Part shown: positions 10,464 through 64,000 of the stretch, in pieces
Position numbering within the stretch: position 1 is the first letter of the stretch
Layout of the letters: every line of letters begins with the position of its first letter
NCBI GenBank assembly: GCA_949128115.1
Contig: OX421966.1
Span: forward strand, 62,121,416 to 62,185,415
Length of the DNA stretch: 64,000 nt
Source of the DNA: Anaspis maculata
Lineage: Eukaryota > Arthropoda > Insecta > Coleoptera > Scraptiidae
Direction: 5' to 3'
Position numbers and translations under genes: made by a program
The notes under the pieces: model-generated
Databases searched by the model: none
The model's input: the letters and a program-made list of their open reading frames with translations, nothing else
What the model was told of the DNA's origin: nothing

Positions 10464-10469
10464 TTTATT
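10464..10469 (-). terminator. Candidate poly(A) signal for DDX46
   Basis: This AATAAA on the minus strand lies about 320 nt beyond the DDX46 stop and is the nearest canonical hexamer. It sits inside a dispersed repeat, so its use is uncertain. Confidence 0.4.
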
Positions 10470-10787: not shown

Positions 10788-11030
10788 TTAGACGACCTTG
10801 TATCTGGCCTTGTTGAACGTGTGGTGTCCCGCAGTTTGGAGCTTGAGCAGCTCCTCCTTTATCAGCCTGGTGATTTCCGATTTCGCCTTGGCCACGGCGA
10901 TGTCCGACGTGCTCTCGATGGCCAAATAAAGCTTGCGTTCTCCTTCGGGTGGATTCTTGCCCGTCTGGACGTACGTTCCGCGAACGGTGATGCCGGCCTC
11001 CGAGTACTCCGAGATCTGGGCTAGGGCCTC
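10788..11030 (-). CDS. DDX46: DDX46 coding exon 9 (C-terminus and stop)
   Basis: It encodes [46 protein letters not shown] and the terminal RYKVV before TAA (10790-10788). The acceptor tgtgttccag matches phase 0 of exon 8. This exon lies about 27.8 kb from exon 8, with only repeats and unrecognised DNA between. Confidence 0.95.
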   Translation of the reverse strand, partial: EALAQISEYSEAGITVRGTYVQTGKNPPEGERKLYLAIESTSDIAVAKAKSEITRLIKEELLKLQTAGHHTFNKARYKVV

Positions 11031-17000: not shown

Positions 17001-20000
17001 AGTTTCTACTGTACATCAGAACTACGCTTACTTTGATCTCGCTTTGGTCGACTGGACTTTCCTGTGCGGATTGGAGGACGTTGACACTGCTGTTGAGGCT
17101 TTTTATTCCAAACTGTATACCTTGTTTTATAAGCACATACCTTTGAAGAAGCAACCGACTCGCAAATATCCGTCTTTGTTTAACGGCAGAATTATCTCCT
17201 GCCTTAGACAGAAGGACAGAGCGTGGAGGGGGTTTGGGAGGAGTGGGAGTGATGCTGATCTGGCTCGCTTTAGGGAGTTGCGTGGGCTTCTCAAGCGGGA
17301 GATCGACATCAGCTATAAGAGCTACCTCGTCCATATCGAGAGGAACATCGTTCATAATCCGTCAACCTTCTGAAGAAACATCAACTCTATACCTAAGGCA
17401 GTGTGGAGACGTCTCACCGGTAATGGTTCACGATGGCGTCGAGTACAATACCCCTCAAGGAATCGCTGACACCTTTGCGGCGAGGTTTTCCTCCGTTTTT
17501 GTGAGCCCCCCTATACTTTTCCTCAACAGCCTGCGTGCGAATTCCCTAAGACCAGTAGCTTGTTGATTGTCAATGAGATAGATGAGAGTGACGTCCTCGC
17601 TGCTTTGAAAAAACTCGAGTCCGGAATGACAACTGGTCCTGATTCTGTGCCTGCCTTCCTCATTAGGGACTGCTCCTAAGTCTTCGTAAAGCCTTTGACC
17701 GACATGTTTAATCTGACATTAAAGAGATCCATATTTCCTGAAATCTGGAAACGTACACGTATTTGTCCAGTTCATAAGAAAGGCAATAAAAATGAAATAT
17801 CAAATCATGGACCAATCTCCCTCCTGAGGAACTCCAGTAAGGTCGTCAAGACTGTGCTGCAAACCTTTCTCTATAATCATACCTGCAGGTTGTTGTCTCC
17901 AAATCAGCATGGTTTTGTCAGGGGACGCTCAACTGCGTCCAATCTCATGTGTAAGACCCAGTTCATCGGCGGTGTGCTTGATTCTGGTGGTCAGGTGGAC
18001 GTTATTTACACCGATTTTTCAAAAGCTCTTAATACCCTGGACCACGACACTTTACTGCATAGTGCATAAGTTGTCCGCCTTTGGCTTGTCCCCTTCGTTG
18101 GTTGAGCTCTCGGTTGAGCTCTTGAAATCATATTTATGTGACAGCGATCTATTTGTCCAGCACAACGGTAGCAGGTCTGGTGAATTCCTTCAGCAATAGG
18201 GTGTGCCACAGGGTTCTAATCTTGGTCCTGAGTTGATAAGAATTTCACCCATTCCGAACCCTTTGGTATAGGCTTTTTTGCAGTAATTACACCATAAGGT
18301 TGTTTCCTACATTTATGGGGGTACGTTAAAGACAGAGTCTATCTCAACTATCGCTAAACAATCATGGAGCTCAAAGACAATATTCGGGGACTTATTGAAG
18401 AAATAGAACCTGAAATCTGCGAAAATGAAATAAAAATGTTCACTGAAAAAATAGCTCTTTGCAAAGACAACCAAGGAGTACATGGACAGATGTTGTTTTT
18501 CATCTTAATTTTCATGTTTCTACTTTAGTAGGTATGAGATAGGTAATTTTCCGATTTTCAAAAGACTGCGCCTTTTATTCAAAAAAAAAAAATGCTTCAG
18601 TTTAACCTGGGACACCCTTTATATTCTTATATTATTCTTATATTCATAAACTATACTGATATTATGGTAATATATTATTCAATCATATTTCATGTCTCGT
18701 AGAAACCCATCTATCAAAAATACCAGCACATATAGCGGCCATATTGGATTTAACGCAAGCAGGCCACCAGAGGTCGCGCACAAGTTGCTTGCGATGGTTT
18801 CCTAAAACCTTTAGACCATAGCTAAGACTATACCAAATTTCAAAGACTTGGCACGAAGTGCACGATTCTTATGAATTTTCAATAATTACTGCTCCGCTAT
18901 GAAGGAGAAACACCATTCCTTGCCCACTTTCTTCATTCGAAACTCATTGTGATATTTTGTTATCAGAATGGGGTACTAATCATGGGCGGGAATGAGCGAC
19001 TAATCAAAAGTGGCCTATCTCTTCCCATATTTAGTCAGCTATCTACAGGGTGATTCACCACCAAATGGACATAGCCTAAGGGTAGGTCCAGTTTTACCAG
19101 GCGAACCAGGATCTGGCTTTGAAATTTTTCTAACACTGTTTGTTTCGAAGTTACAGGGTGATCCATGTATGTTGTCGAATTTTTTGACAAGCCGTATCTT
19201 CAGAACGACCGGATGGATTGGATTGAAATTTTGTGGGTTGATTCTTCCATTGATATCTGACACATCGCCCTATCAAACAGTTTGAAGTTTCCAGGGCCGG
19301 CCTTGTAAAAAAAACTCCAAAGCTTTTTTCTAAAATAGACATTCTGTATGCATATTTTTCGAATTTCATTTTCAAAATCGGAAACTACATCAAACATGCT
19401 TATAATATCGCAAAAAAAATTGCTTGGCACCATTGAGCTGTCAAGAAAATTTTGACAATCGCAAGATTTTTGAGGTTAGGATTTTTTCTAAATTAATATT
19501 TTCAAATACTTGCAAATTATCTATTATGGCCCTGAATTTCAGCCGTTTTGTCAGACACATGAAACCGACATTTTTCTCGTTTTCTCAGAAGTAACAAAAA
19601 ATTTCATCAAAATTTTAAAAAAATTTTTGATACGTTCCTCAATTTTAGCTCAATTTGGGATAAAAGTGAAGCTGAGGGACGTTACAATATTTTTTTTCAA
19701 ATTCGGCTGAAACTTTTTGTTACTACTGAGAAAACGAGAAAAATGTCATTTTTATTTTTATGACGAAATGGCTGAAATTTGGGGCCATAATAAATCATTT
19801 GTGAATATTTTGAAATAATAATTTACAAAAAATCCTAACCTCAAAAATCATCAGAATTATCAATTTTCTTTTGACAGCTTAATGGTGCCAAGCAATTTTT
19901 TTCGCGATATTGATAGCATGTTCCATGTTGTTTCTGAATATGAAAATGAATTTTGAATAATATGCATACAGAGTGTCTTTTTTGAAAAAAGCTTTCAAAT

Positions 20001-23000
20001 TTTTTTTTCAAGGCCGGCCCTGGAAATTTTGAACTCTTTGATAGAGCGATGTGTCAGATATCAATAGAAGAATAAACTCACAAAATTTCAAACCCATCTA
20101 TTGGGTTGTTCAAAAGTTATGGCCTGTCAAAAAATTCTACGAAATACATGAATCACCCTGTAGCTTTGAAACGAACAGCGTTAGAAAAAATCCAAAGCCA
20201 GATCCAGGTTCGCCTGGAAAAACTGGACCTGCCCTTGAGCTTTATTGAGGTTATGTTATACATTTCTCTTACTTTGGGGGCGGCGTGTTGGAGCGGCAGA
20301 GTTTGGCGAAGAAATTCTTCCACAGTTTGAGTTTGGAGTTTCTGAATGTTTGAGGTAACATTAAAATGTAAATCAGTGGAAATTATTGAAATTTGCACTT
20401 TTTTTCTTTTGGGGGTGGAAGTTGGAGGCGGTGCCATATCAAAAGTAGCCTACTCTTTCCCATTTTTAGTTAGCTATCTATATAGCGAAAGAATTAGATC
20501 GTTATGTCTTCGGGTTTATGTTTTTCATTCATCTCTCACTTTGAGGGCAGCGTGTGGGGGCGGCAGCATTCGGCAAAGAAAATGTTGCACAGTTTGAGTT
20601 GAGAGTTTCTGAATGTAAGGGAAATATGAAAATCAGTGAAAATTGTGAAAGTTGCATTTTTTTTGGTTTGGAAGCGGCGGCTAATTAAAAGTGGCCTATC
20701 TTTTCCCAATTTTAGTCAGCTATCAATATAGTGAAAGAATTAGATCGCTATGGCCCGTATTCATATCCCACTTTTAAGCTAAAAGCGCTTTTAGTGCGAT
20801 GCGCATTTAGGGGCATTTCTCATATTTCAGTGTTCAAAAATACATTATTGCGATTGAGAGCGATTGTATGTACTTAATTGCAATTAATTTGCGAGTTGAT
20901 TTGTATTTTTGAACACTAAAATATGAGAAATGCCCCTAAATGCGCATCGCACTAAAAGCGCTTTTAGCTTAAAAGTGGGATATGAATACGGGCCTATGTC
21001 TTCAGGTTCATGTTTTACATCTATCTCTCACTTTGGGGGCGGCGTGTGGGAGCGGCAGAGTATGGCAAAGAAATTCTTGCACAGTTTAAGTCAAGAGTTT
21101 CTGAATGTTCGAGGTAACATTATCAGCTAAATCAGTGAAAATTGTTGAAAGTCGCACTTTTTTTCTTTTGGGGGCGGAAGCTGGAGGCGGCGCCATATCA
21201 AAAGTAGCCTATCCTTTACCATTTTCAGTCAGCTATCCATATAGCGAAAAACTTAAGCGAAGCTATGTCTTCGGGTTCATGTTTTTCATTTATCTCTTAC
21301 TTTGGGGGCGGCGTGTGGGAGCGGCAGCGTTCGGCTGAGCAAATGTTGCACAATTTGAGTTGGCAGTTTCTAAATGTTTAAGGGAACATCTCAATCAGTA
21401 GAATTTATGAAAGTTGCACTTTTTATCGTTTGGGGGCGGAATCTGGGGGCGGCGACTAACCAAAAGTAGCCTATCCTTTCCCATTTTCAGTCAGCTATTC
21501 ATACCGAAAGAATCAGATCGCTATGTCTTCGGGTTTATGTTTTACATTTTAAAGTGATTGTGGGCGGTTTTTAGCAGTTTTTTTCATGTCGGCGGCGCAT
21601 ATTGAAGACGGAATGATTCTTGGCTTACGTTTATAAGTGGCAACTATGTATTATTCAAAAAATGAAAACACCAGAGCATCAGGTCTGGTAGAAAGTGCAA
21701 TATTATGTTATTTCAAGTTTATCTGGGGCGGTTTTCTATATGTTGGCGGCGCAATATGGACATCCAATATAGCCTAACCCTCCTTTGGGAGTGGCAGCTA
21801 TATAACAGCGAAAAAATTAGAAAGCTAGGTCGTCTAGTTTGGGAGGAGTTCGAGGAACGGACGGACGGACGGACGGACGGACGGACGGACAAAGCGGTTG
21901 CAATAGCGATTTTCATCAAGATGGAAAATGCGCTGAAAACTATTATCTACTTTGCGTTGCTAATGGATTCATTATTACATCGAAAGCGGTGCTTTAATGG
22001 AGAGTATCAATTAACTGCTTTTCAGCCAATAGCAACAATTTATTGTCAATAGAAGGTAGGCAAACGTCAGTGTGAAGGTGTCACCAGTCAAACGTTTCTA
22101 TTTTTAGCAGCCAGAATTCACGATCTCTGGGCGTTAATCAGAATTAACTACTTAATTCTGTAGACGGATTGTCACACGACTTCATGATTAGTTTTGAGGC
22201 ACGACGAGCTTGGGACAGCAAAACTAGTCGTGTGACAATACTATGTCTTATGAAACTCTTATAATAATATCATTATACTATATTAGGAAGGCTGGAAATG
22301 TTTTCGAAAAATGGAAATGTTTCTTTCAGGAAGTCTACCATCGAAGCGCATCATTTACAAATTTAACTGTTTGTTTTTTTAAACAACCGGGTGATAATGC
22401 CAAAACATAATTACTATTGTTTACAAGTTTACACTATTAAAACGTTAAACATTACAATGATAACGAATACTGGCATGTATCTTCCAAATTCGCAATAAAT
22501 TACATATCATTCCGTAATTTCTAAGTCTGATCTAATAATAATTCGGGTAATCATTTATTATTATCACATGGATGTCAACCCTGCAGTGTGGGGTGGATTT
22601 GTGGGTTCACATGACGAAAACCGCATCAATAAATTTCGACAGACTTAATTCGATTTCACATTTGTAATAGGTAGGTAGTACACACACCATAATCGATTAC
22701 GTTCAGTCGATTGAATCCTTTTAATCAACCTAGTGTGTAGAAATTCGTCCGATTTCCGATAGTTTGCATGACTGGTTTCGTTCCAAACAATCAATAACAC
22801 GAATCTTTTAAGTGTATATGAGGGTAGTAGATATTTGAGAAAGATAAAATGCATTTGTCGTCTTCACTTTTCACACAGAGGACTTTTCGAGTCGGGTCTA
22901 TCGGTACAAAAATAGCTCCATGACCGAAAATTTTCGTTATCAAAAATGTAATAATTAATAAATAAAACGGCTATCGCTTTGTTTTTTTCTTTCGGGTAAA

Positions 23001-26000
23001 TGTCACATGAAATCCGTGTGCCTGTATCACTTTGATCCTCATTAAAATTAGAGAGGAGAATATCAGAAAAATAACCTCTCATTCGTGGTACGGTTTTTAT
23101 CTCAGTAATTATTATTACTAATAATAATAAATGTATTTTTTGTTTTGACAATTGGTGATGTGCACCAATGGAATGCAACTGTGCAGAAAAAATAACTTTG
23201 AAGATCAACTTGAAAATGAGATTATGACGACCTAATTGGAATGAGAAGGTGACATCTCTAATCGTATTTTTTACATGATTAGTATTCATTAAAACATTAT
23301 GATAGCTCAGAATCAACAAGATGTGCGTACTTAGGTAAGTACTGAAAAAGTACTGCATTGCTATGAACCGATAAAATCAATTTGAACGAAGCAGATGAAA
23401 AAAAAAATCGTTTTTATTGCAAAAATAGCAATATCGCATGTAGGCCAATCGACAAGATTCTGGATTTATTGGGCGAAGTTGATGGAACATTGTTCCATCT
23501 GGCACATGGGCCTCGCTATTGGGCCCATTGTACGGCTCCTAGACCAGCCGGACTAACCGGGCCACAATATGGTGCCTGGATGTTTGATGGTCGGTCCATC
23601 CAAGCATTAAAGCCGACAAGCACACAGTTGACCAGGACTGCACTGTCGGTTTTCCTTCACATATTGCCGTACTGACGGTTGCAAGCATGTTATACTTGGG
23701 AGGTTTGCCTAGGATTACTCGAGGAGGAGTTTTAGCCAGGTCAGATCAGAGGAGACCTGCCAACGGCTTGCCCACTGGCACTACCCACCGGCGGTCTCCC
23801 ATCCAACTATTGGCCACGCTGAGCGTTGCTGCAGTCGAGTTATCACCCCACTGGAACGGTGTACTAAACGCTATGCCCTCCTCTTCATAATACATCATTT
23901 AATTATGAATTGTGATGTTGGCGTGGCGGGATGAGGAATAAGGTATAGTATGGAATTATGCCTAAGTACTCGCACATTAAACTTTCAACTATCGAACTGG
24001 AACGAAGAGTTCGAACCTAAATAAATTTATGGAAATCGAATGGGTAGGTACCTTCAACACTACAATGCGAAGACCCACCCACACCGACCACCTTTATTCA
24101 TTGATAATGTGGAAGAGACACAAACAAAATCCTTCGTCCCGACGTGTAACCTTTCGCACTTTCCAGAAATAGGCATTCGGGATAAGTGTTTAGGATTTCT
24201 CTAGATTTTCGGTTTTCCCTAATTAAATAAAACGGGGGACTGCGGTTCGTGGCTCCCTGACCGAATCATATTTTCTAAAAATATGGCTCCGACCAGCACA
24301 GTTACCAAAGGCTCGGTTCAACAGATCCAGATTTTCTTTCAACCGGTACTTTCGTCTTGAATGAAGCGAATTTTGGTCCTTCGACTCCTTTTTAATTTTT
24401 TCCATCATTTATAAACTGGTCGGCCAAACTAAAGCGCACTTCTTTTGTTAAGGATCAGTGAACGCAAGATGTTGATTAGGGTCCTACCGTTATTCAGACA
24501 CGATTTTGCCTAAACTGCTGGACAACGAAGTTGTCGGTATCGGAAAAATGGTCCAACTTTGGAGGTTGCCATCTCTCGGTTGCCGATTGCGATTTCCATT
24601 TTGTTTGTTGCGTTAACTAGCCTAATCTTTCCGTAACCCATCCCAATAGTAAATGTTGAAAAACTTCATGTGAGTTTTCTACAGGGTGATACGTAAAATA
24701 GTGTAGAATTGCAACGACTTCATCGTTCCCCCATTTTTCAAAAATATATTTTTTTAATTTTCGAATACAAAAATTATGAAGTGTGGTGTCTTATCTCGAA
24801 ACGGTTTTGGAATTTCCCGGATTGGAAGTCTAACATTGAAGATATAAATTTTTATGTTGAATGTTACAGATTTACGAAACTCGGGCATAGCACAAGCACA
24901 AAAAGTATAACATCCAGAGGGGCTTTACTTTACTCGGACACTGAAATTTCACATCGTTACCATGTTCAGGGGCTTAAATCTGCAAATAGAACATGTTTCA
25001 CATCTGAAATTCTGATGAAATTCTGACAAAATTCAACGTACGAAAAACAGGCAGGGACAACCACTTAAAAATGTGCCCCCTGCTTGGCCCCACACCAAAT
25101 ATTCGGGTTGTGTTGAGGGTGAAATTGACCTAGACTGTTGTACGAACAATCTTACAAATACAAAATACAATACAAATTTTATTGTTTCTCAACTACACAG
25201 GCTGTAGTATAAACAAAATAGATATGTTAACATGTAGGTACTATGTGTTATGTAATCGACTGCATCATTCTGTAGGGAGGTACGAAGTTTCCGGGGAAAA
25301 AAACAAAGCCAAGGCACCTGATAAAGGTAAAATCAATGATGATAATGTGTGACCCACGAGTTAAAAAAAAAACAATCTTGCTCAATGTCAACATCCATTA
25401 ATCAAAAGTGACTGAATCTCGAGTGCCAACAAGGCAAATCTGTAACATTCAAAAAAAAAATTATATCTTCGATGTTAGACTTCCAATCCAGATAATTCCA
25501 AAACCGTTGCGAGGTAAGACACCACACTTCAAGAATTTTGTATTAGAATACATGAACAAAATTTTTTCGACAAATGGGGGTACGATGAAGTCGGTACAAT
25601 TTTGCAGCATTTTACGTATCACCCTGTAGAAATTTTACATGAAGTTTCTCAACATTCACTTCCACAGGATAGGTCACGAAAGCATTAGGCTAATTGACAC
25701 GATAAACAAAACGGAAATCGCATCCGGCAATCGGAAGTTATTGGTCTTCAAAGTCGAACCATTTTTCCGATACCCAGCAGTTTAGTTCGGTTCTCAAGAC
25801 TATGAGCTATCCATCAAGAATTTGCTGAAATGCAGGAGGTGAAACACATACTTATAATAAATGCTTCCAATTTCCTAGTTATGTCTAGTCATGACATGAA
25901 ACACTTAGTAACAAGAAAGTGATTCTGATTACCTTCTATCGAGATAAATATTTGAATTTGATATCAACATGTTGATTCTTTATTGAATAGGTATAGGTAG

Positions 26001-29000
26001 ATTTCTACATCCAGATTATGAATTTGCACTCAATAGAATGAAAATTTTTGATTTCAAAAGTCCTGAGATTTTTAGTGCTACCGACTTTTTTCAACAGTAA
26101 TGATTCTTTTTTACAGTGGTCGTACAAATTTCGGTCGAACGTTTGAGCATTGGGAGATTCGCGCGCTGTTGAAATTGGCGGCATAATGAGTCGTAGCGTT
26201 TTTTTCGTTGGGAGGTTTGAGATTATGTCATTTAAGGGTTGAAAGCTTGGAAAAATTGACCGTGTCATGCGTGGAAATGCGACTCAGGGGCCGCAGAAAA
26301 ACGTTATCGTCGTTTAGACGTTAGAACAGCATGTTTCCATCACGACACTATTTGGAGCGACGGCCTCGCAGTTTTCAGTTTGAAGCGTGGAGAAATCGAA
26401 CTCACTTCAAGCCGTTGGAAATGTTTTTCCCAACTGTCAAATGTAACAGGCTGTCCCGATTTTTTTTGTTCATTAGCGAAAATTGAATATAGGTCAGAAA
26501 ATTGCACTACTTTCTAATAAAATGGAGAAAATCGTCAAACGTCACGTCCCGCAAAAATTGACCGTTCATTTGTAGCTGAAATTCGTGAAAAATGCGTTTC
26601 TCTGTCATGAATTATCGTGTCGAATGAGTTTTATTTGCGTGATTCATTATTAAACATAGTTTAAGGGACTTTCTATAGTTATATGTTCATACTTGGAAAA
26701 CTTATGGTGCTATTCTGTAAAAAATAACATTCCATAAACGCTCTGTTATGTAAAAATTCGTGTCAGCCATTGGCTGTTGCCTAGGTAATAACAACGTAAC
26801 AGAGCCTTTATGGAATGTAATTTTTTAGAGAATCGCACCATTAGAACCAAAATCTCTAAGGTCACTTGGATCACAGTTCAGCTGGACATACTATACCTAC
26901 TAAATTAGAAACAATATTTGTAACGTTGCAATATCACGGGTTCGGCCGTTTTTCATGTATCGCTCTTCTATTTACATAATTGAGTAATAATTATCCCTGT
27001 ACTATAAAGTGATTAGTTTAATCTGCTGTTTGTTAGTTTATTCTGTAGTTAATTTCCATTGCTTTGACAGAGTGCTTGTTCTGCGTGCATCAACATTTCA
27101 CGACCTTTTTTTTTTTTCAATGTTGACAAATCAATAATTGAATTATCCACTGTTTACTAAATAATGAGAGTAATGAGATTAAATAGCATGTAAATATTTA
27201 CGAATTGACAATCGAACAATTTCAAACAAGAGATAAGAAATGCTTTGATTGAATAATCATGATGTTTAAAGGAAAAATCCAACTTTCGTGCTTTGTCACA
27301 CCAAAAAAAAAAAACTGATTCTCCTGAAAATGGGCAGTAAAATGGGCCATCATTGTATGGTTTTTTGAGCATAATTTCAGGAAAATTCTGAATTAGAAAG
27401 TGCAAATTTGGAAGAATTTCTAGCTCCTACGAAACTACTTTTCAATATCGTTATACCTAATAAAGAGGAAAAGTATGACCCTATCATAAACCTTGACAGC
27501 ATCAGTCGCCATGTCGATATCATTCTTTACTGTTTAAAAAATTCAAGTATTGGCTAGTGCGAAATATTTGTTTTCATCCTCACCTACAAGAACATGAAGA
27601 ATTGGCGCGTTTATGTCGTTTCCCACATTTTCGCATCAGCTCATTCCATTTATGAAGTTGAAATTGCGATAATTCTACTTTTAGAAGAATGTCAGACAAA
27701 AAAGTGACCAATTTTCATTGCCTTGTTCAACAGCGGGTTTTCCAATTTTTCCAACCGATATAACTAGTAAACGAAAAATAGATTGGACTGTAGCAGTATT
27801 TCGAGATTTTGAATGCGGAACCGCAGGTGAGAATCCTGAAGACATTTTGTTATCAGGAGCGGTAAGAAGGTTTTCAGCTCTCAGTTGTACCAGTTCCAGG
27901 AGAAATGAAGTAGGCAGCGGCAAAAATATTTCGCGCAACTATTCTCACCTCACGACAAGCGGTGTTCAAATTATTTTGGACCGGCATCTTGCTTTTTCAC
28001 TTTACTGGAGTAGACCCTTTTATAAGGTCATCGTCCTTCATAGTGAGTGTTTAAACAGAGCGTCCTACGCAAAGTACTTTTTGCAGCCAAAACAATAAAT
28101 TGACTCACTTTGATTGAAACTGAAACACCCTGTATTTCAAATCGAAATGAAATCAATAGGGAAAAAAACGTGTTTGAATGAAAAGAGATCTTATTGGGAA
28201 GATGTTTGCAAAAAATGCAGGCTTACAAAATCTCTGTACAGGGCAACGATTCAATTTCCGATTCTATCCGATTCTATAAAACAAAAAATTGAAAAATTTG
28301 TATTTTAAATAAGAAATGCATGGAGCTTTGGGTAGCCTCAGCAACAAACTGCTGCTTCTAGACTGACCACTTTTAGTAAGTATAGGTGCAGACGGACCGG
28401 TCAAGACAGGGGCCATCTCAAGATAAGACGAACAGACGAAAACAAACTCTTACAGATAAAGCCACTTCTTCTAGAAACGATATCGAACAAATCCGACTTT
28501 TTTCGACCGTGTCCAACAAACGAAAGTTTCGAAATAAATCCCTAATAATGACTATCATCTAAGTATGCTTGAAAAAAAAAATTGTGAAACCATTACTTTT
28601 GCCAATCCTCAGCTATAGCTGCGCGTAAACCAAAATTGGTAGCGTGTAGCAGTAGAGTAGGCAGCCTCTGGTAGGTAGTAGCAGTCATAATCCAATGAGT
28701 GTGACGTCACGGCATATCCAAAGCTCGCACATATTACATTAGCACATTCAAGAGGCCATATTATCGAAACACGCACACAAATTTTGGTTCGCACTTTGCC
28801 ACTTCAGGTGGGCGCTCTAGCACTAACCATCATCCCGATGTGGACTGAATGGAAACGGCAGTATGTGGGTTGAAATTTCAGATTGTTATTGGAGCTGATG
28901 CAACTTTTCAATGGCTTGCCGCAGTTTGTGATGATGCGGGTTTTCGAGGATGTTGCATCATTCACCCTTTTGTTGCTACATACGCTTCGAGTACCTAGTT

Positions 29001-32000
29001 ATTTCCATTAACTACTAGTTATTTGCTATTTGTCAGTTAGTGCAGTATAATCCTATCGCCAAGGAATGTCCCACGAAAACTACCCCTAAATACGCTAACT
29101 GTACGCTATCTTCCACCATGCTTGAATCGCAACCGTGTTTGGATTGGTCGCCAATAGCTTGCCTGGGAGAATTTCATGAAAGGGCCTTCAACAACAGGTT
29201 GATACTGACAGACCAATGACCGTGATAGAAGGCTCTAACCACCAATTTCATTCCAGTTTTGTCGTGGCGTTAATGTTTCTGTGCAATTTTCAACAAAAAC
29301 GGGGTTTCACGAAGTAAGGGGAGCTCCTGATGTGATTTTCAGTGCTCGAAATTTGATCGCCATCGGTTGAACGGTTAAAAAGTTATGCCAAAGAATCGAT
29401 TCAAACATTAAACAACGCCCTGTAGCTTTGTGACGGAGCATTTTAGAACATCCATGTCATAATATGATATGAATTTGTACAAGTTTTGTGGTAGAAATGT
29501 AGCCAGATTCGACAATTATTTTGATCTCTCAAGATTCAGTATCAATGTACAGATAAAAAAAAATTTGCACCACTATGATTCCCGGGAATCTGAAGTACTG
29601 ACAGATTGGAGCGGCCAGCGTTGTCACTCGACATGAACCCTATTGAACATGCTTGGGATTAGCTAAAGAGGGCTGTGGGACGCCGAAGAAACCTGCCGCG
29701 TACTGTTTCTGAGATTCGAGTAGGCGCCATTGAAGAACGGGATGATTTGGAGCGGCAGAGCCTCAATGACTTAGTGGATAGCATGCTTTGTCGAGGGCGG
29801 GCTTGTCGACTTGCAAGACGTGAAATTACCCGTTAATGTGTCACTATAAGATTCCCTCTGAACAATTTAATCAAGAAGAACTTTTTTCAAAATTTGCTAC
29901 TTTTTGTTTCTATTAGTTCTGCTTTTTCTTGTGTGTATTGTTTTGCTTAGAGATTAGAAATCTTTCTTCTTCTTCTTCTATACTCCAAAGATTGTATTTA
30001 TCACGGCGCTGGAAGAAAATTATACACGATTTCCATGTTACTACATCTCACCGCTATGAAGTTGTTGGAGATAAGATTCACTCCGTGATGTTTTTGACGG
30101 CAGAAATGACTAATGCACAATGTACATAGACTCGATACGCATTAAAGAGAGCATAAACGTCATAATTGGTTTCCTCGCAGTTTTCAATGTTGCGGGGAAG
30201 TAAGTTTCTTCTACTACAGCAGTTTTCGATGTGGCAAATGGATGGTTTTCGGCGAACTGCACTAACTACTCTACGTCCGCTCGTGTGCTATCTTGCAGCG
30301 CCGAAGCCTGGTCGTTAACGTCAGTCGTGCCTTCCGTCCCACGTTTTAAATTGAAAACTGTTGTTTTAGAACAGCTATTTCATGCACCACGTGTTGCAAT
30401 GACCAGCCTTCCTGAAGTTTCGCGATGGCAAACCTTCTTTAAGACAGTATTTGAGCAAAATATTTATTGTGCGAGCCACTGAATACAGGGTGATTCACCA
30501 CCAAATGGACATAGCTCAAGGGCAGGTCCAGTTTTTCCAGGCGAACCTGGATCTGGCTTTGAAATTTTTCTAACGTTGTTCGTTTCGAAGCTACAGGATG
30601 ATTCATGTATTTCGTAGAATTTTTTGACAGGCCATAACTTTTGAACAACCCAACAGATTGGTTTGAAATTTTGTGGGTTTATTCTTCTATTGATATCTGA
30701 CACATCGCTCCATCAAAGAGTTCAAAATTTCCAGGGCCGGCCTTGGAAAAAAAAATTTGAAAGCTTTTTTCAAAAAAGACACTCTGTATGCATATTATTA
30801 AAAATTCATTTTCATATTCAGAAACAACATGAAACATGCTATCAATATCGCGAAAAAAATTGCTTGGCACCATTAAGCTGTCAAAAGAAAATTGATCATC
30901 CTGATGATTTTTGAGGTTAGGATTTTTTGTAAATTAATATTTCAAAATATTTACAAAGATTAATTATGGCCCCAAATTTCAGCCATTTCGTCATAAAAAG
31001 AAAAATGACATTTTTCTCGTTTTCTCAGTAGTAACAAAAAGTTTCAGCCGAATTTAAAAAAAATTATTATAACGTCCCTCTGCTTCACTTCTATCCCAAA
31101 TTGAGCTAAATTTGAGGAACAAATCAAAAAATCTTTGAAAATTTTGATGAAATTTTTTGTTACTTCTGAGAAAACGAGAAAAATGTCATTTTCATGTGTC
31201 TGACAGAACGGCTCAAATTCAGGGCCATAATAGATCATTTGCAAGTATTTGAAAATATTAATTTAGAAAAAATCCCAACCTCAAAAATCTTGCGATTGTC
31301 AAAATTTTCTTGACAGCTCAATGGTGCCAAGCAATTTTTTTTGCGATATTATTAGCATGTTTGATGTAGTTTCCGATTTTGAAAATGAAATTCGAAGAAT
31401 ATGCATACAGAATGTCTTTTTCAGAAAAAAGCTTTAGAGTTTCTTTTACAAGGCCGGCCCTGGAAACTTCAAACTGTTTGATAGGGCGATGTGTCAGATA
31501 TCAATGGAAGAATCAACCCACAAAATTTCAATCCAATCCATTTGGTCGTTCTGAAGATACGGCTTGTCAAAAAATTCGACAACATACATGAATCACCCTG
31601 TAACTTCGAAACTAACAGTGTTAGAAAAATTTCAAAGCCAGATCCTGGTTCGCCTGGTAAAACTGGACCTACCCTCAGGCTATGTCCATTTGGTGGTGAA
31701 TCACCCTGTACATATAGCCTCATAGCTGACAAAAACTGTTCAAACTGCTAGCTACTGCTGTTTAAGCCGGTCGATAGCTCAATCCTTCAGCTCCGACTCT
31801 CATTCTCTCTTCATTTCACCACTAAAGGCATTAAGAAAGACCTCATCTACATGGTTTCTGAATTTCCCGCCTATCTCTTTTATTTACAGGGTGATCTGAA
31901 GAAGCAGATTTTTGGTTCTTCGGTGACTTGGTTTTCCAGTAATAACCTTTTCCCAGGTCAACCGATTTTCACAATCTAGGGTTCGTGCTGACGCTAAAAC

Positions 32001-42950: not shown

Positions 42951-43000
<50 letters not shown>

Positions 43001-49000: not shown

Positions 49001-52000
49001 AAGAAAGTTTCATTGATCTAGGCCGGATAGTTTGTCAGTTATGAATTTTTTTCTGGCGCATTGAGTTGGAACGTCGCCTGGCGTGTGCTTGCATACAGTA
49101 AATCGCCGCATAACAAACAGTGAACGTGGCACAGCGCGCGGCGATTTACTGTATGCAAGCACACGCCAGGCGACGTTCCAACTCAATGCGCCAGAAAAAA
49201 ATTCATAACTGACAAACTATACGGTCTAGATCAATGAAACTCTCTTTAAAATTTTCTCTGATATTTCGGCTTCATTTTCCTCGCAGGTTGTATCTAAAAA
49301 TTCCTACGAGGAAAGAAGTTCTTCGCATGGTCAAAAAGGGACTGCATTTTTGGTCAATATAATGTTTATTGTTCTATAAACACGTTCGTGAACAATTATC
49401 TTTAGTCAGTGATGTACCATTGGAAAGGTTTTTCCATGTACTTTTATTTAAAAAAAAGAACAGACCGATAGCTCAACTGGATCCAGAAATATAACGTTGT
49501 GAATGCTGAACTGCTCATTTTCAATTTTTGAGGTTTTTTACCCATAAAAAAGGTCCCTACCACAAGATCATCCCCAAAATGACCATACATACGTGGAATT
49601 TAATTCTCTATAAGACCTATAAGGTTTGGTGCTGTTATACCTTCAAAAAAAAAACGACGACTTTTCAGGCCGATTTCGCTCCACTATTGCCACTTGCCAG
49701 CCGCACACATAAACCAGGGCCGCGCGAAATTAAAAGTTGGTTTGACTATGGGACTATGCGACTTATATAATATTTATGCAATATATATTATACAATAGCT
49801 ATTCTGTGGTACGACCCCAGTGTTCAACATCAGCCCCTACCCTTCTGGCTGGGGTGGGTATGCTCAATTCAAAGAGCATATTTAAAGCAAAGGTTACATC
49901 ACGGTTTATTACTTATTATGTCATATCTACCGCATACCTGTCGGCTTCGTCCAGGACGATGTAAGTGACCCTCCTCAAATTGGTCACCTTCCCTCCGTTC
50001 GCCGCCAACATGTCGATCATCCTGCCCGGCGTGCACACGATGATCTGCGCGCCCCTCTTCAGCTCGGCGATCTGCTCGGAGATCCCCGTGCCTCCGTACA
50101 CCGACACCGCCCTCAGGTTCAGACTTTTAGTGAACTTTTTGATGTCCTTGCCGATCTGCATGCACAGTTCCCGTGTCGGCGTCATGATGATGGCTATGGG
50201 GCCGTCGGTGTCTTCTAGCGCCGGCTGATCCAGAATGTGCCTGAACATCGGCAAAAGGAAGGCCAGGGTCTTGCCGCTGCCCGTCTTGGCGATGCCTATC
50301 AGGTCGCGCCCGGACATGATGGCCGGGATGGCCTGCACCTGGATCGGCGTCGGCTTTTCGAAACCCTGCTTCTTTAAAATGTTCAGTTCTTTGGTGGAGA
50401 CGCCGCACTGGGCCCAGGTTTTGATCGGCTTCGGGCAACCTTTACCTGCAAATTTATTATATTGAAGTCATTTTTTTAAACCTCGCGAAGGATCTCAAAC
50501 CCAACGTACACTCGGCAGCAAAAATAGCGCCCACTTGATTTATGTCGAAGACGACTATTTGCTTGACCTGCTGTACCGTAGTAGGTAGTCGCAGTACTCG
50601 AGATGAATAACGCAATGTTGCACTTGTTATCAATATACAGGGTGATTCACCCACTAATGGACATAGCTTAAGGTAGGTCCAGTTTTTCCAAGTGAAAACT
50701 CCATAAAACATGTTATTAATATAACAAAAAAAAAAAATGCTCGGCACCATTGAGCTGTCAATAAAATTTTGATAATTTTGAAGTTTTCTGAGGTTAGGAT
50801 TTTTTGTAAATTAATAATTTCAAATATTTGCGGTCTTAAATTTCAGCCGTTTCGTCAGTTTCAGCAGAATTTTCAAAATATTTTTGTCACGTCCCTCAAT
50901 GTTAGCTTAATTTGGGATAGAAGTGGAGTTGAGGGAAGTTACATTTTTTTTTAATTGTGATGAAACTTTTTGTTGCTATTGAGAAAACGTGAAAAAAATT
51001 TTTTTTGACGAAACGGCTGAAATTCAAGGCCATATAAGCAATTTTTTGTTATAATAATAGCATATCTTATGTAGTTTCTAAATATTGAACTGAATTTGAA
51101 ACACTATGCATGCAGAATGTTTTTTTTTAAGCTTTGGAGTTTTTTTTTCAACGCTGGCCCCGGAAATTTCAAACTGCTTGATAATGGCAATGTGTCAGCT
51201 ATCAATAGAAGAATTAACCCACAAAATTTCAATCGAATTCATTGAATCGTTCTAGAGATACGGCTTATTAAAAAAATCGACAAACTACATGAATCACCCT
51301 GTAACTTCGAAACGAACAGCGTTAGAAAAATTTCAAAGCCAGATCCTGGTTCGCCTGGAAACACTTGACCTACCTTCAACGACCCAATAACCGGTTTGTT
51401 TGCTCAGTCCGCTACAAAGGTGGCATCGATTGATCCATCTCGAGTACATGCCTACCTACTATGGTACAGCAGGCCAAGCAAATAGTCGTCTTCATCATAT
51501 ATCAAGTAGGCGCTATTTTTACTGCCGAGTGTACCTGCCCAGGATGATAACAGTTAGACCGATAGGGGTCTCACCTTGAGCTATTTGTTTCACTAGGTGG
51601 CTTATTATTATGTATCTCGTACTAATGATTTTTCTTCTCATTTTCTTCAGAAGATCTTCGATGTTACGTTCAAAAGTTGACTGAGAAATGCAGAAAACTG
51701 TACCCCAATATTTTTTGCAATTTGCAAGTACAAGGCTTGTAAACTAAACCGCGCTGGCGCGTATTTCGACTGAGGCTCATGCCGCGCACTTGCGATCCAG
51801 TTAAAATAGTCAGATTTTCATGAATGAATATTTCATCAGATTTTAACGACTGTGAATACGGACATACAGGGTGTTCGGGTCTGGTTATAACAAACTTTGA
51901 GGGATGATTCCCCATCAAAAATAAAGCCGAAAGAACAAAAAAGTCATGGTCCTAAAATGCTTCCTCAAAAAAGATACAGGGTGTTGAAGTTAACTTTTTA

Positions 52001-55000
52001 AATCGTTTTTTCACCGTAACTTTTGAATCGTTGCACAGTGGGTTGAGAATGGACATTTTGTGGCGGAAACTCTCAAACTTACAGAACTAGTCCAGAATGA
52101 GCTTGTGATTTCAAGAAGAATAATGAAAAAATTCTCATCTGAAAATTGGGGTTGTTTTCAGGGGGTGAGAATTTAACTTACTGAATAAAAGTCTGAAACT
52201 TTCAATTTTCACAAGAATTGACCTTTAAAATAAGGGAAAAATAAAGAAAAAAATCTCATTTGAAAATTGGGGTTGTTCACAGGGGGTAGAAATTGAACTT
52301 GATGAATAAAAATCTGAAACTTTTGATTTCCATAGCACTTTATCTCTCAAAATATTGAATGAATAGAATGAATTATAAAAAAATCATGAAAAAATCATCT
52401 GAAAATTGGGGGTGGGTTCAGGGGGTGCAAATCGAACAATCTGAAAAAATCTGGAACTTACAATTTTTAAAGCATTTGATCTCTTGAATTATGTAAAAAT
52501 GATGGAAAAGATCTCATTTGAAAATTTTTGTTTTTTTCAGGGGGGTGGAAATTGAACTAACGGAATAAAAATTTTCAATTTTCATAGCATTTGACCTCTA
52601 AAATAATGAACAGAGAATATTTGCGGTGGCGGTGGCTCGAAGATTCGAAGAATTCACATGTGTTGTTGTCTTGAGTTACGCCACCCAGATGAGTTTGAGA
52701 GCATCAGGACAAATAGATGCATCGAAATAGCTTCACGAAATTACAAGTTCAGTTCTCTCCCCTGAAAACCAGTCCATTTTTAAGATGAGATTTTTTCATT
52801 TTTTGTCATCAATCAAGAGGTCAAATGCTATTAAAATCGGAAGTTTCAGATCTTAATTCCGTAAGTCAACTTTCCACCCCCTGACAACAACCCTAATTTT
52901 CAAATGAGATCTTTTCCATCATTTTTACATCATTGAAGAGATCAAATGCCATCAAAATTGTAAGTTTCAGATTTTTCAGATAGTTCAATTTCCACCCCCT
53001 AAAAACAACCCCAATTTTCAGAAAAGTTTTTTTCATAATTTTTTATCATTTATTTTAATCATTCATCTATTTAAGAGGTCAAGTGCTATGAAAATCAAAA
53101 ATTTCAGATTTTTATTCATCAAGTTCAATTTCCACCCCCTATGAACAACCCCAATTTTCAAACAAGATGATATTCTTCATTTTTCCCTTATTTTAGAGGT
53201 CAATTGCTGTAAAAAATTGGAAGTTTCAGATTTTTATTCAGTGAATTAAATTTCCACCCCCTGAAAACCACCCCAATTTTCAGATGGGAATTTTTTCATT
53301 ATTTTTCCTAAAATCACAAGCTCATTCTGGACTAGTTCTGTAAGTTTGAGAGTTTCCGCCACAAAATGTCCACTCTCAACCCACTGTGCGTTGGACCGAA
53401 TAATAATAATACCACAATTCATCAAAAATTTCTGGGGGCGTAGATAATAGGAGACTGTCCCCTATTTTCGCCCCTATTTTTATCTCCTCTAATTATTTTT
53501 TTAAATTGTTGATATTTTCGGATTTTACGTTCAAATTAGAAGAAAAAGTTACTCTTGCAAAATTTTGATTAGAGGCTTCATTTTCAAGATATTTGGGTTT
53601 GAAAAATTGGAAAACAACACGAAATAGCCACTTTCCGGGGCCCAAATAGGTTTTTTTCTGAGAAACTTCATGTTTCTCTGCGAAAATGGTGGTTTATCAA
53701 CTTCAAACACCCAGAAAACTCCTTCTATTTGACGAATCATGGGTTTTCTTGAATTTTAATTTTTAGGCCCAAGAAAGTGGCGATTTCGAGATGTTTTCCA
53801 ATGTTTCAATCCCAAATATCTCGAAAACGAAGCCCTATCAAAATTTTGCATGGGTAACTTTTTCTTCTAAACTGAACGTAGAATCCGAAAATATCAACAA
53901 TTTAAAAAAAATAATTAGGGAAGATAGAAATAGGGGCGAAAATAGGGGACAGTCTCCTATTATCTACGCCCCCAGAAATTTTTGATGAATTGTGGTATTA
54001 TTATTCGATGGAGACTCATTTGACTTAACTTTGGTTCAAATTTGATTAAAATAGGTCCAACGGTTCAGAAGTTACGGTGAAAAAACCATTTAAAAAGGTC
54101 AACTTCAACACCCTGTATCTTTTTAAGGAAGCATTCTAGGACTATGAGTTTTTTGTTATTTCGGCTTTATTTTTGATGAGGAATCATCCTTCAAAGTTTG
54201 TAATAACCAGACCCGAACACCCAGTATATGCCGTTCACGTTTTAAATGAAGTAGAAATGCCTTTTTGGATAAAAATAAATTAACAAGCTGGTGGGCTACG
54301 GCTACGGCTTATGGCACCCGCGAAGTTTTGGAGCGAGACTATCAGCGGCCATCAGCTGTATCCTCCCAGCGCCCCAGCTTGTCACTTTATTTTTGTTCTG
54401 AAAAGTCATTTTACTGAACATAAAAAGTGAACGGGGTAAAGGTACGTATTTATAATAAATTTGTAAAACAAACCTTTGACTCTGATGCCTTCCATTTCTT
54501 CTTTGTAAGCGTCGACTTCTTCGGGCGTCATCTTGGCGATTTCCGGAACTTCCACGTAGAAATTCTTCCTGAACGGATAGTAAGTGATGTTGTTGTGGTC
54601 GATCTTGGCCAGCTCCTTTTTCTGCTTGTTCGCTATGTTGGCGGCGGTGTCCTTCAGATCCTCCTGCTCCTCCTCGGAGGAGTACTCCATGCCGTCCTGG
54701 TTCTGCTCGATGAGTTCGCCCTTGTTGGTGCTGACCTTGGATTTGGCCGCTATGCCCGTCACGATGACCAGGGCGCCCTTTTTGTTGTCGTCCTTGCCGC
54801 CGGCCGGCTTTTTCACGTCGAACTTGTTCGTCTTCCGCACTTCCTCCTGCACGCCCTTCATGAACTCGTCCAGGGGGTCGACGTCGTCTTCTTCTTCCGC
54901 GGGAGGCGGCGGAGGGGGCGGAGAAGCGGGGGCGATCACCGGTTCCTGTCCGTTTTCCTTCTCGTCCTCTTCCATCTCGGCCTCGGCGGCCTTGTCCGAA

Positions 55001-58000
55001 GCATCTTCCTTGTCCTTGTGGTCCTTGTCCTCGTCTTCGGAGTCGTCTTCCAGAGACCACTTCTTGGACGAGGACGAGCTCTGCGGGACCCGGATTTCTT
55101 TCTTGGCCGCGTCCTGCTCCTTCTTTTTTCGCTCGGCGCGCCAGCGTTCTATCCGCTCGCGGCGCTTTTGCATTTCCAGCTCCAGTTTTTTCTGCTCTTC
55201 TTCCTGCAACAATAATTATCAATCATGAATCGCGAAGGTGAGCGACTAAAAACCGGCATTACAATGCCAAGATTGCCAAGACAGACATGGGACTCGAGTT
55301 TTATGATGTGTGATTCTCCCTTCAGTTGACCAGAAGTCGAATCAAAAGCCGGTTCGAGAGGAAGTTGGAGACCGAAGCAGGTTAAAAATTCAAGGACAAA
55401 ATTTTACACTAGAAAAATCAACCAGAAACAGAAATTGGGTTGCTAGGGAAAGTCTGCTTAGCAACTCCTCAGAAATCTAAGCAAATACTTATACTTATTT
55501 TTTATTATTACTACCCATTATGTAGTTACAGGTGATCCACCGAGATTCCCCCCCTCCCCTTGTTGACATTTTCCCCATTGGAATAAATTGGCAGAGAGAA
55601 AAAAATTTCGCAACAATTGTTCCTGCAGAATTCAGATTTGGACACCAAAATTTTCTATATCTTGCAGTATACAGAGTGTTAACGTTTTTTTGACACCCTG
55701 TATTTGTATATTGGTAATGATGCGGCTTTTCCTTTCAAGTCCGCATAATATTATTTGATATGTGATTATGATGATATAAAGGCTGTTCATTTTCAAACTT
55801 TCTATTTCGAATTTTTTGTCACCAAATTTTTTTCCCGAAAAACGCCGAAACAAGGCAATTTTTATTTGAAGGGGGACCTCTAGGACACAAATTGCAAAAT
55901 GTTCATCTTCAAACCCTTCGCTACCACCCTACCCTACTTCAAAATTTCGAATAACATTACCTATCTCAATACCTTCTACATCAAATTGAAGTTGATGAAA
56001 TTCTCTTTCTGCCAAATATATACACACCCAAATGGTCTAGGGATCACCTCGAAATTTTGTTTTGGCTGAAATGACACAATGGGGTGTTATATTGGAAAAA
56101 ATTTGTTTTTTATTGAGTATTCCTATTGTTTCTTATCTAATTAAGCCTTTCATGTAACACGCACGTTAATTCTTGCTCTAATTATCTAGAAAAAAAAAAT
56201 CATTAATCTGTGACGTCACGTGGTGAACCATGCGGCAAACCAAACGTGACCTACTTTGCCGATATTTTGGCGTCTTCGAATCTGAATCACGTTTTGTCAA
56301 TTTTGACGTGCAATTCAAAACTTCAAATCACATGACATTTGTTGTCTGAATTAGAAACGACTGCACTAGCGAGAACAATTTTGAAAAAACGTCCTTTGAG
56401 TGGCTTTGAGGAAGGCAACCATGACGGCCACCAAGCTAGGTTAGCGCCGCAGATCAGTGAGAGAGCTTCTGGTAGCATTCCTGAATTTTTCTGTGGGCAT
56501 TCCAGCAGGGTTTGTGTCTTAATAAATCGGTTTTTCTTTGATCAAATCACGTTGATATTGGCCTAAGGGAACTTTATCCGGTGTAAATAAAAAATAGGTA
56601 GGTAGTTATATCTTTCAATACATTACTCACTTATTTTCAGAACAGCGAACTCGGCCAGGCCGCTGCAAAACGGCCCTTAGCGGTAAACTCTCGGGTGAAA
56701 TGAATTTGTTTTTGATTTATGCATGCAAACACTTCAGTCTTTCTAACTCCACCTCCTGCTCCAGGGGTACACGATAGGGGGGTATTGGGAATATTCGAAT
56801 GCTTTTCAAGTAATTTTAACGTGATTGTAATCAGAAAATTGCACTCACATTGGAACACAAAACACTCCAAAATTGACACAAAAGTTCCCTTATTTTCGCA
56901 AATTTTATTTTTATTATCACCATCTGTGACGGGCTAACTCTAGCCCCAGCGTGACTGGTGTTGCTGTGTTGCTGAATGCTGCTGATGCTTGCTTGCGGCA
57001 CAGCTTGCGGTAACACTTCACTTTTTTCTTGGCATCAGCTATTTGTCAGGTTGATAGGCTGACACGCTGGGATGTTCGGAGTTCACCGCGTTTCCGATTC
57101 CGTACGATATCTAGCGAGAAATTGTACCGCGTCATTTGGCGCCATCTGTTACGCACCCTGGTACCAGTAAGCGCGTGACGTCACGCGAAATTTTCTTTAT
57201 TTTTTTCGGGGCCTAAATGAGCGCAAAAAAATCAAATAAAAAACAAATGAGCTCTACGAAGGCTCTAGTATTTGAATTCATTTTTTCCCTAAATCCGTGG
57301 AACACCCCATTTCTCGAGAAAACATTGGCCGATTTTAGAAATTTTCGTGGTACTCGATAAAGTAATCTTTTGACTCTCTTTTGACTTTTGACAATGGAAA
57401 GGACACAAAAATGACCTGACTTCAGCAAGGTTCCGTTTCGAGAAAACAAGTCGCAGAATTTTGCAGACAACATTTTTGGATAGCGTACATCAATATCCCG
57501 AAGCGATTTTGGACTTTTGATCGTATTCTGTTTTTTCAAAGAGTTATTGATTTTTTTGTGATTCATGGACCGAGAATTAGGCTGTAAAGAAGCATTTATG
57601 ATGGGAAAAAACTGGTTACTATAGCAATTGTAATGTAACGGAAACTTGCCACTGGTTCATTTTGAACAACTCCGGGCTATTTACATGTAATGCAATGTCG
57701 CAGCATGCTTGATTTGTCATAGTCCTAAAAGAGGGGCAGGTTTTTACCACTTATGAGGGTCGATAGGATCAAATTGTTGAATGATACATTTGACAGAGCT
57801 ATTGTGTTCGTCCCTGTCCAGTTTCAAGGGTTAGCAAGACCGTTGGCAGAGTCTGCACCAAAAAATCCAAAAAAACACAAAAAATCAATTACTGTTTGAT
57901 AAAACAAAATACGATCAAAAGTCCAAAAGAATTTCGGGATATTGGTGTAGGCTTTCCGAAAATGTCACCTAAAAAATTCTGCGACTTGTTTTCTCAAAAC

Positions 58001-61000
58001 GGGACCTCTGCTGAAGTCAGATCATTTTTGCGCTCCTTTCATTGTCGCCCCGTATATCGTACAGAGGGTCAGTAATCGTGTGACCTGATGAGGTAATACC
58101 TTGTAGCCAAAGGATCACTTTATCGAACACCACAAAAATTTCTAGAATCGGTTAATGTTTTCTCGAGAAATTGTCATTTTAATTGAGACCAAATTTCGGG
58201 GTGATCCCTAGACCATTTGGGTGTGTATATTTTTGACAATTTCAAACCCATCCCTCAATCCTTTTAAAGTATAATAGGGTGAAGATAAAAATTTGGCAAT
58301 ACGTGTCCTAGATGTCCCACTTAAAATGAAAATCGACCAGTTTCGGCGTTTTCCTGGGAAAAAAAATTGGTGCCAAAAAATGTGAGGTGGGAAGTATGAA
58401 AATGAACACCCTGTATACATAGGTATAACCATAATCAAATATCAAATTATATTATTTGGACTTGAAAGAAGAAACTGCATCATTTCCAATATTTAAGTAC
58501 AGGGTGAAAGTTTTTTTTAAACACTCTATACAGGGCGGTGAAAATTTCGATGCTCACCATTGGTATCTTGGAAGCGGTAAGGGATACGAGGTCGGTCAAA
58601 TTAGAAAAAAGTTGCGCATTATTGTGGCGATTGAGAATCTGAAAAGAAACTTGGTTCCCGATTTATCACGAAAAAACTGAAAATTCTGATTTCAGAAAAT
58701 ATTTTCTATCTTTCCAACCATTCAAGCTATTTCAATCAAATTTGGTAGTTTCAAGTTTTTTATCACTCCGAGTCAAATAACGTTGACAGAAATTTTCCAA
58801 GCCTCCTTGATTTCAAATTATGATAGTCAACTTTTTTTTTCTTATGGCCGCCATATTGGATTTTTGCACTAATAGATGGAGAAAAAAATTAGCTTTCCGA
58901 ATTAGTAACCAACATGTTCTTTTTATGACATTTTAAGCGTCAAATTTCGAAATTTTCGTAAATTATTGACAAAATCGGGAATGCTTCAAAAAACAATGGA
59001 AATATCATCAATAGCAACAACAACAAAAAAATTGTGTTCAATTGACGTATCTAATTTCTTAATCGTGTTTTGTGCTTGTTTGTACCGAGAGTTCATAAAT
59101 TAAATGAGTCAAGGGTGCCTGTGAATTCAAAGCCGTCTATCGAAACGCGTGATCCCTGGTCAAAACTAGGGTAATCCTTACTCCTTTTGTAATAAATTTG
59201 TCAAACTTGAACAAGAACGATGCTAGTTTCGACAGACGTTTTTGAACTCACAGACACCCTTGACCCATTTAATAGAGTATTATACTTTTGAAAAATTTTC
59301 TTTTTTTCGATGGAATCAGAAACTACACACATCAAAAGAATCTAGGGGACAAGCAAATTCAGACGATTCCTGAAATCATCATAACTTTTGATTCTCGCAA
59401 GCGATTTCATATCGGTCTTCGGTGTTCGATAGCCCAATCTTTCGTTCTTATGCCTTGATCACGTCAAACACGAACAGTGTTTCATAAGGTTGCTACAGGG
59501 TGATCAATGGAACAGTGTAAAATTGCCGAAAGTTCAGTACGAGCGCGATTTCCCAAAAAAAATATTGCATGCATTCCGATAGCACAGTTATGAAGATCAG
59601 TGTTTCAGCTTTAGGAACGTTTTTGAATTTTGAAAATCGAAGATGAATTGCCAAAGATATTGATCATTTAGTGCCGCCATGTTGAACTTCCAAGAAAGAA
59701 GAAAGTGATCCGATTTTATTGAAACTTGGAACACAGTAATGTCTGGTTCAAGTAATTGGAATTTCAAGGTCAGATGTCACTTTCGATCACTCTCGAGCCG
59801 CTATATTGAACTTTTTACATAAATGATTCAATTTGAATGAAACTTAACACACTTTGGCAACGTTGGAGCCAGCCTCCTGGAAGGAGCTGCAACCTTCCAA
59901 AAACACCATAAAAACACTAAAATTTGCATTATCTTGAAAATTTGCATCGAATCGAAAAAAATAACACCGCTGTAAGACAATTGAACAAGCTTCAAAATGA
60001 TGTATCACTCAACCCCAATTGTCATTTGAAATTTTCGAAGGGGCTTCCACTCTGGCTACGGGGGGTGAAACTTCAAGGTTAAATTGATAGCAGTTGAACG
60101 TCCCCCTTGAAAACAAAGCTGACCTGTCCTGGCTTGATGAGATGAATGAGATAATTTGGAAACACATTTGATTTTTACCGGAAAACTCAAATTTTCCTGT
60201 TGAAATTTTCAATTTCCTGCAAATTATTTTCACTCTTTCTCTCTTCAACTTCCCACCTGAAAAGACGTTTTGAACAAAAATTTCCATAGGTTCCTAGATA
60301 CTAGTCGGGAAAGTTTTGGGGGTGACACAGCCGATTTTTAACTCTTGTTGTCTAATTCTTACTGATTTTCACCTTTGTTGTTTTTTTTCAATTTCTTACC
60401 CACCCAGCACTTCAATTTGCTCCGTGGTCTCGTAATTTCATTCATTTCGTTGCTCTCCAACACTTCTCGTTTTTTTCTTTCAATTTCTCACCTCACTAGC
60501 ATCCTGCTTCGCTCTGTTATTCCAAACCTTGAAAAAACTCTCGAAAACTGCTAGACAATCAAAAACAAATCGTTTGACCTTCATTTTTGACACTGTCATG
60601 AGTTCATTACTACTTTTGAATTTTTCAATTCAACTCTGCCTATATGAAACCGGACCCCAAAAGTGGTATTATAACTATGGTACATTTTGTAAAAGAGTAG
60701 GGACTGCTTTTTAATATTCTTTATCAAAACTTGGTTAGTACGACTCATCTCTTTTCCAGAACAAATGACTCAAATAATTTCAAGCAATTTGAAAAAAATT
60801 GGTGTTTGAAACTCACCCTGTATAGGAAACAGACAGATATTCAATACACATCCAGTATAGTTGAAACATTTTGCCCAAGATTTTACCCTAACCAGTTTAC
60901 TGAAACCCTTCGAAATAACAAAACTAAAAGGGACCATCCTCGCAATATTCATAACTTTAAAACTAGAAGTCGATGAAACTGGTTTCTTTCTTTTTTGAGC

Positions 61001-63543: not shown

Positions 63544-63790
63544 TACAGGATGTTTCGCAATTACGGTTACAAACTTCTAGGCGAGATTTCCCATCAAAAA
63601 TGGACCAGGAAAAAATATATAACTTCGATGTCCTAAAATGCTCCGTTGAAAAGTTACAGGGTGTTCAAGTTGACTTTTAAAAATCGATTTTGTGACATAA
63701 CTTTTGAACCGTTTAACCGATTTTGTTCAAATTTGGAACAAAGTTAACTGAAATAGATCTCTATCGAATAATAGCAACGCGTTTCAAAGA
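63544..63790. mobile_element. Left arm of a foldback-family element cut by the window end
   Basis: TACAGGATGTTTCGCAATTA, then blocks inverse to the tail at 35850-36091 (CAGGGTGTTCAAGTTGACTT, ATAACTTTTGAACCGTTTAA, TCTATCGAATAATAGCAACG). The remainder lies beyond the window. Confidence 0.75.
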
Positions 63791-64000
63791 AAAAAAATCT
63801 TTTGAAAAAAAATGGACTGTAACGTATTATTGCATCGCCAGCGTTTGTACTTCGCATAAGCCCTGTCTCTGAGTGACATCTGAGTAGTAATATGTTTTTT
63901 ACTTCGAAAGTAGCCATCAGGTTTATTTCGTTTCGAAGAACTCATCGCAAGTTGAAACAGTCATGAAGTTTCGAGAATCACTGTCTTGCGAATTTATCGA

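What the first reader, a model, noticed from the sequence alone, without database searches (positions are those of the whole stretch)
19044..58535. Introns of a splicing-factor gene are packed with long self-complementary elements sharing CAGGGTG-type ends
At least nine foldback units of 0.5-2.9 kb lie in DDX46 introns 3-8 (19044, 24680, 30484, 34933, 44278, 46017/46306, 50636, 51865, 55672), and others lie downstream and upstream. Arms pair over essentially the full length, not just at short TIRs, and many termini read TACAGGGTG next to TA. They encode nothing. In the pre-mRNA each would fold into a stem of hundreds of base pairs. Seen: the pairing and termini. Inferred: one mobile system, and a possible source of endogenous hairpin siRNA or editing substrates.
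Basis: partly seen in the sequence, partly recalled or inferred. Interest (0 to 1): 0.75.

Follow-up and report, generated by a model that had tools for sequence, protein, structure and literature searches.

The report
Nested foldback transposons in beetle introns
The introns of this beetle splicing gene are filled with several related, non-coding, hairpin-shaped relics of cut-and-paste mobile DNA, some inserted inside others; this is an ordinary kind of genomic parasite, with an unusual doubled end motif, and any small-RNA role is untested.

Summary
The foldbacks are real: 47 inverted pairs or palindromes cover 25% of the window, none in 20 shuffles; TACAGGGTG occurs 33 times against 0.21 expected. 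They are not one unit type. Some pair along their whole length (A1, A2, 48562-49686); others pair only at long ends or are nested composites (50636, 51865, 55672). The sites at 24680 and 46017 lie inside larger foldbacks. Mobility is well supported: two copies are 96% identical, in opposite orientation, though their own arms are only 85% alike, and uninterrupted paralogous sites point to insertion at TA. Best reading: several families of non-autonomous foldback DNA transposons, probably Tc1/mariner-type, whose ends carry a second TACAGGGTG 108-111 bp inside the first. No transposase was found. The closest printed match seen is a Rhodnius MITE beginning TACAGGGTGA, filed as 'Tc1-like ?' (PMC4678618). 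Nothing ties them to splicing-gene introns as such. siRNA or editing was not testable; the whole-genome search did not complete. New members of a known kind.

The parts
10791..61157 (-). DDX46/PRP5 gene of a beetle; coding blocks 61113-61157, 54472-55173, 49937-50455, 47260-47958, 40878-41093, 38799-39155, 10791-11033
   Evidence: tblastn of Tenebrio and Tribolium DDX46; best named hits of an 832-aa concatenate of five exon translations are beetles. The 61113 block is weak (E 0.06 and 0.007)
19044..20241 (.). A1: group A foldback, TACAGGGTG at the left end and again at 19152 and 20162(-); last 29 bp of the right end lost; sits in a 269-bp tandem array
30484..31710 (.). A2: complete group A foldback, TA/CAGGGTG at both ends, second motif 108 bp inside each end (left one with one mismatch)
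44278..45569 (.). A3: diverged group A foldback, both ends doubled (44278/44386, 45569/45461)
50636..51380 (.). A4: decayed group A copy; inner motif at 51303(-), right outer end replaced
50507..51533 (.). Host element of A4 with TACACTCGGCAGCAAAAATAGCGCC ends, about 50 bp from exon 49937-50455
51865..54226 (.). C1: group C composite, doubled ends (51865/51975, 54226/54117, the outer right one with one mismatch), with internal palindromes 52033-53389 and 53402-54005
34933..36089 (.). C2: group C element, doubled right end (36089/35980); left end TACAGGATG
63544..63798 (+). C3: end fragment of group C, motifs at 63544 (one mismatch) and 63655
24510..25785 (.). E1: foldback with CTAAACTG ends and internal TACAGGGTG at 24680 and 25628(-)
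45839..47071 (.). E2: group E foldback (ends CTAAACTG and CCAAACTG) whose right arm is split by the element at 46306-47054
46306..47054 (.). e46: element with TACAGGTGTC...GACACCCTGCA ends inserted at TA in E2; the other arm of E2 is the uninterrupted site
10235..10294 (.). p56: 56-bp palindromic element CAGGGTGTTCATT...AATGAACATCCCG flanked by TA; uninterrupted paralogue at 40567-40685
8548..9504 (.). Foldback with CAGGGTTATTC ends, 428-bp arms 87% alike, beyond the last coding exon
55527..58535 (.). F: decayed composite, TACAGGTGATCCACC at 55527 (no matching right end in the window), CAGGGTG motifs at 55702(-), 58415(-), 58498, inner palindrome 57309-58171
48562..49686 (.). Near-perfect 1125-bp palindrome (95.6%) filling 57% of its intron; TAGTGGAGCG ends, no CAGGGTG
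39268..40690 (.). Foldback (454-bp arms, 83%) in a 1.7-kb intron; related copy at 10171-10519
32467..34247 (.). Foldback with ACCTAGAAATAATTCG arms (296 bp, 95%) and an inner palindrome 32933-33583

Best explanation
These are non-autonomous foldback DNA transposons (long-armed MITEs) of several related groups, with decayed and nested copies. Shown: a unit copied whole (group A), TA insertion sites at three places, nesting, no transposase frame found. Inferred: a transposase of the Tc1/mariner type, encoded elsewhere, recognised the TACAGGGTG ends and cut and pasted the units into TA. The second TACAGGGTG 108-111 bp inside the end would be an inner transposase site, as in Tc1-like elements with inner and outer direct repeats. 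Long complementary arms make RNA hairpins in the pre-mRNA as a by-product.
For: A1 and A2 are 96.2% identical in inverted orientation, while each one's arms are only 85% alike; arms group as A1L+A2R and A1R+A2L; 66 of 90 arm mismatches of A2 recur in A1. Uninterrupted sites with TA: e46 in E2, p56, left junction of A1 in its tandem array. A2, A3, C1 and C2 have TA on both sides and only 1-3 of 8 flanking bases matching. Six same-strand motif pairs at 108-110 bp against 0.065 expected, at most 2 in 20,000 random placements. Inner segments of A and C are alike beyond the motif in 3 of 4 comparisons (p 0.002 or less; the fourth 0.09). A Rhodnius MITE with TA+CAGGGTGA ends was filed as 'Tc1-like ?' (PMC4678618). 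Tc1-like Bari elements carry three direct repeats in about 250 terminal bp, and give MITEs as short as 77 bp (PMC4877112).
Against: No transposase was found: of 138 open frames of 70 aa or more scanned (of 190 selected at 62 aa or more), none matched a transposase model; a badly broken one would have been missed. Outer and inner segments are alike only in the 9-16 bases at their start, so the inner/outer repeat reading rests on motif and spacing. Outer segments of A and C are not detectably related. A3 and C2 are flanked by TATA on both sides, so a longer duplication than TA is not excluded for those two. Several foldbacks have other ends. No genome-wide copy count: the genome search did not complete.
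Confidence: 0.68

Rival explanations
1. Foldback DNA transposons of another TA-targeting superfamily (for example ISL2EU or one not yet described), not Tc1/mariner.
For: TA sites alone do not decide the superfamily; no transposase found; doubled ends with unrelated outer segments are not textbook Tc1/mariner. That ISL2EU uses TA is recalled, not from a call.
Against: CAG-type ends next to TA, and a comparable Rhodnius MITE judged Tc1-like with a question mark.
Confidence: 0.17
2. hAT elements: CAGGG ends with 8-bp target duplications.
For: CAGGG-type ends are common in hAT (recalled); the 8548-9504 unit has 6 of 8 flanking bases alike.
Against: A2, A3, C1 and C2 have 3, 2, 1 and 1 of 8; the e46 uninterrupted site fits a 2-bp duplication.
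Confidence: 0.08
3. Palindromes made on the spot by foldback replication or inverted duplication, not mobile.
For: Some palindromes lack any recognised end; 48562-49686 is nearly perfect and has no second copy in the window.
Against: Group A units are copied whole with their arm asymmetry; uninterrupted sites exist.
Confidence: 0.03
4. The hairpins are kept by selection as sources of endogenous siRNA or as editing substrates.
For: Predicted stems of up to 547 pairs in the transcript strand; the core of 48562-49686 folds at -620 kcal/mol against -164 for shuffles.
Against: Most of the 47 pairs are below 90% identity, copies are nested and truncated, and similar units lie beyond the coding exons. 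No RNA data available.
Confidence: 0.04

Closest known systems
Rhodnius prolixus MITE_83.0 (PMC4678618, passages read)
   Same: TA + CAGGGTGA ends, 489-1073 bp, no partner found in that genome
   Different: No doubled end at 108 bp is described in the passages read; sequence after the first 10 bases differs
Bari and other Tc1-like elements with direct repeats inside the ends (PMC4877112, passages read)
   Same: Long inverted repeats with repeated motifs inside each end; MITE derivatives of tens to hundreds of bp
   Different: Bari has three 18-nt repeats per end; here two shared 9-base motifs whose following sequence differs; no transposase found here
Foldback elements: Drosophila FB, Galileo, Tetris, Tm1 (Galileo, Tetris and Tm1 seen in search listing only; the rest recalled)
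   Same: Very long arms, internal tandem repeats (about 119-bp units in 52115-53308), composites
   Different: Here TA duplications; Galileo (P) and Tm1 (Mutator) use longer duplications (recalled)

Membership tests
Tc1/mariner superfamily | Insertion at TA with a TA duplication | tested here: met
   e46 and p56 against uninterrupted paralogues (one e46 flank reads CA; the p56 site is TATATA, so its register is ambiguous); A1 left junction only. A3 and C2 have TATA on both sides, so their duplication length is open
Tc1/mariner superfamily | Terminal inverted repeats beginning CA(G) next to TA | tested here: met
   A2, A3, C1 left, C2 (the right end of C1 reads CTGGG); the CAG rule itself is recalled
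Tc1/mariner superfamily | DDE/D transposase of the family | tested here: inconclusive
   None in 138 open frames of 70 aa or more; an autonomous partner elsewhere could not be sought
Tc1-like with inner/outer direct repeats | Two or more similar transposase-binding repeats within each end | tested here: inconclusive
   Same 9-mer twice at 108-111 bp, but no significant likeness beyond the motif
hAT superfamily | 8-bp target duplication | tested here: not met
   1-3 of 8 bases alike for A2, A3, C1, C2; the 8548 unit alone is ambiguous (6 of 8)
piggyBac | TTAA target | tested here: not met
   No TTAA in the 4-bp flanks of the seven units taken in register (the e46 and p56 rows there were set 1-2 bases off)
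MITE (structural class) | Non-coding unit with inverted ends, several copies, target duplication | tested here: met
   genome copy number not tested
Hairpin siRNA locus | 21-22-nt small RNAs from both arms | not testable with these tools
   No RNA data held

The most novel reading that the evidence does not exclude
A TA-targeting transposon lineage of insects whose ends are built of two modules: a related inner end and an exchangeable outer end, both starting TACAGGGTG and held 108-111 bp apart. Outer ends may be gained by insertion of one terminus at the TA of another, so that families change their outer recognition sequence while keeping the inner one.
Probability: 0.12. Interest if true: 0.5.

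Novelty: new member of a known kind. Interest (0 to 1): 0.3.

Why it matters
The locus is a compact record of how foldback transposons build up and nest inside introns, with uninterrupted sites that help fix their ends. The fixed-spacing doubled end is a concrete, testable feature of how an unidentified transposase recognises its substrate. It also warns against reading such hairpins as regulatory without small-RNA data.

Tried and rejected
Whole-genome search for copies: nine requests did not complete. Relatives in other collections: TACAGGGTGATTCA in viral contigs gave 120 stretches before the scan stopped at its limit, with one match in each of the 80 rows listed, which I take as chance and did not read further. 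The paired motif TACAGGGTG-N(90-110)-TACAGGGTG gave 115 stretches in viral contigs (80 listed), many with match lengths in multiples of 9, which look like short coding repeats of phages; not read further. TACAGGGTG plus the TAACTTTTGAAC core gave none in viral contigs or bacterial/archaeal contigs. A DDX46 exon against plasmids gave nothing, as expected. No insect genomes were searchable. An alignment of three open frames from A1 and A2 found no predicted protein at E 0.001 (118 candidates), so it gave no hint of the spread of the family. RNA families at gathering score: none. Search for the ends in print: 'CAGGGTG' with transposon, terminal inverted repeat and insect gave one paper. Other listings showed me no further relevant use of the motif, judged by titles and abstract starts only: 20 listed of 213; 25 of 384; 15 of 43; 5 of 5. 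PMC5139131 (passages) proved to concern mollusc satellites.

Considered and rejected: a tandem duplication as the source of the doubled end (the two segments differ after 9-16 bases); arm-to-arm gene conversion in group A (66 of 90 arm differences are shared by A1 and A2; the 19 sites equal in A1 fit private mutations of A2, which is my reasoning and was not modelled).
Full report
Setting. The window holds a DDX46/PRP5 gene on the minus strand. Seven coding blocks align to Tenebrio and Tribolium DDX46 (the block at 61113-61157 is weak, E 0.06 and 0.007). An 832-residue concatenate of five exon translations has beetles as its best named hits, 75% identical over 100% of the query for Tenebrio. 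The species was not identified.

Noticed in passing
   Followed up: partly
20752-20994: Palindromic element with GGCCCGTATTCATATCC ends inserted in one unit of the 269-bp array; comparison with another unit suggests a TAT duplication, as in Harbinger-type MITEs (recalled).
   Followed up: partly
18996-21549: Tandem array of about 269-bp units inside the last intron, interrupted by A1 and by the 20752 palindrome.
   Followed up: partly
11847-13694: Tandem array with a 119-bp unit in the last intron.
   Followed up: no
42200-42863 and 14455-14798: A 330-bp palindromic repeat present as a head-to-tail dimer at one place (95% alike) and as a single copy, 93-97% alike, at another.
   Followed up: no
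16195-18877: 153-bp inverted arms (93%) flank a stretch with open frames that look like reverse transcriptase by eye, perhaps a LINE fragment inside an older element.
   Followed up: no
3993-4352: Open frame that looks like a retrotransposon integrase end (read by eye).
   Followed up: no
52115-53308: Tandem units of about 119 bp in opposite orientation in the two arms of the palindrome inside C1, like satellite-bearing foldback elements.
   Followed up: no
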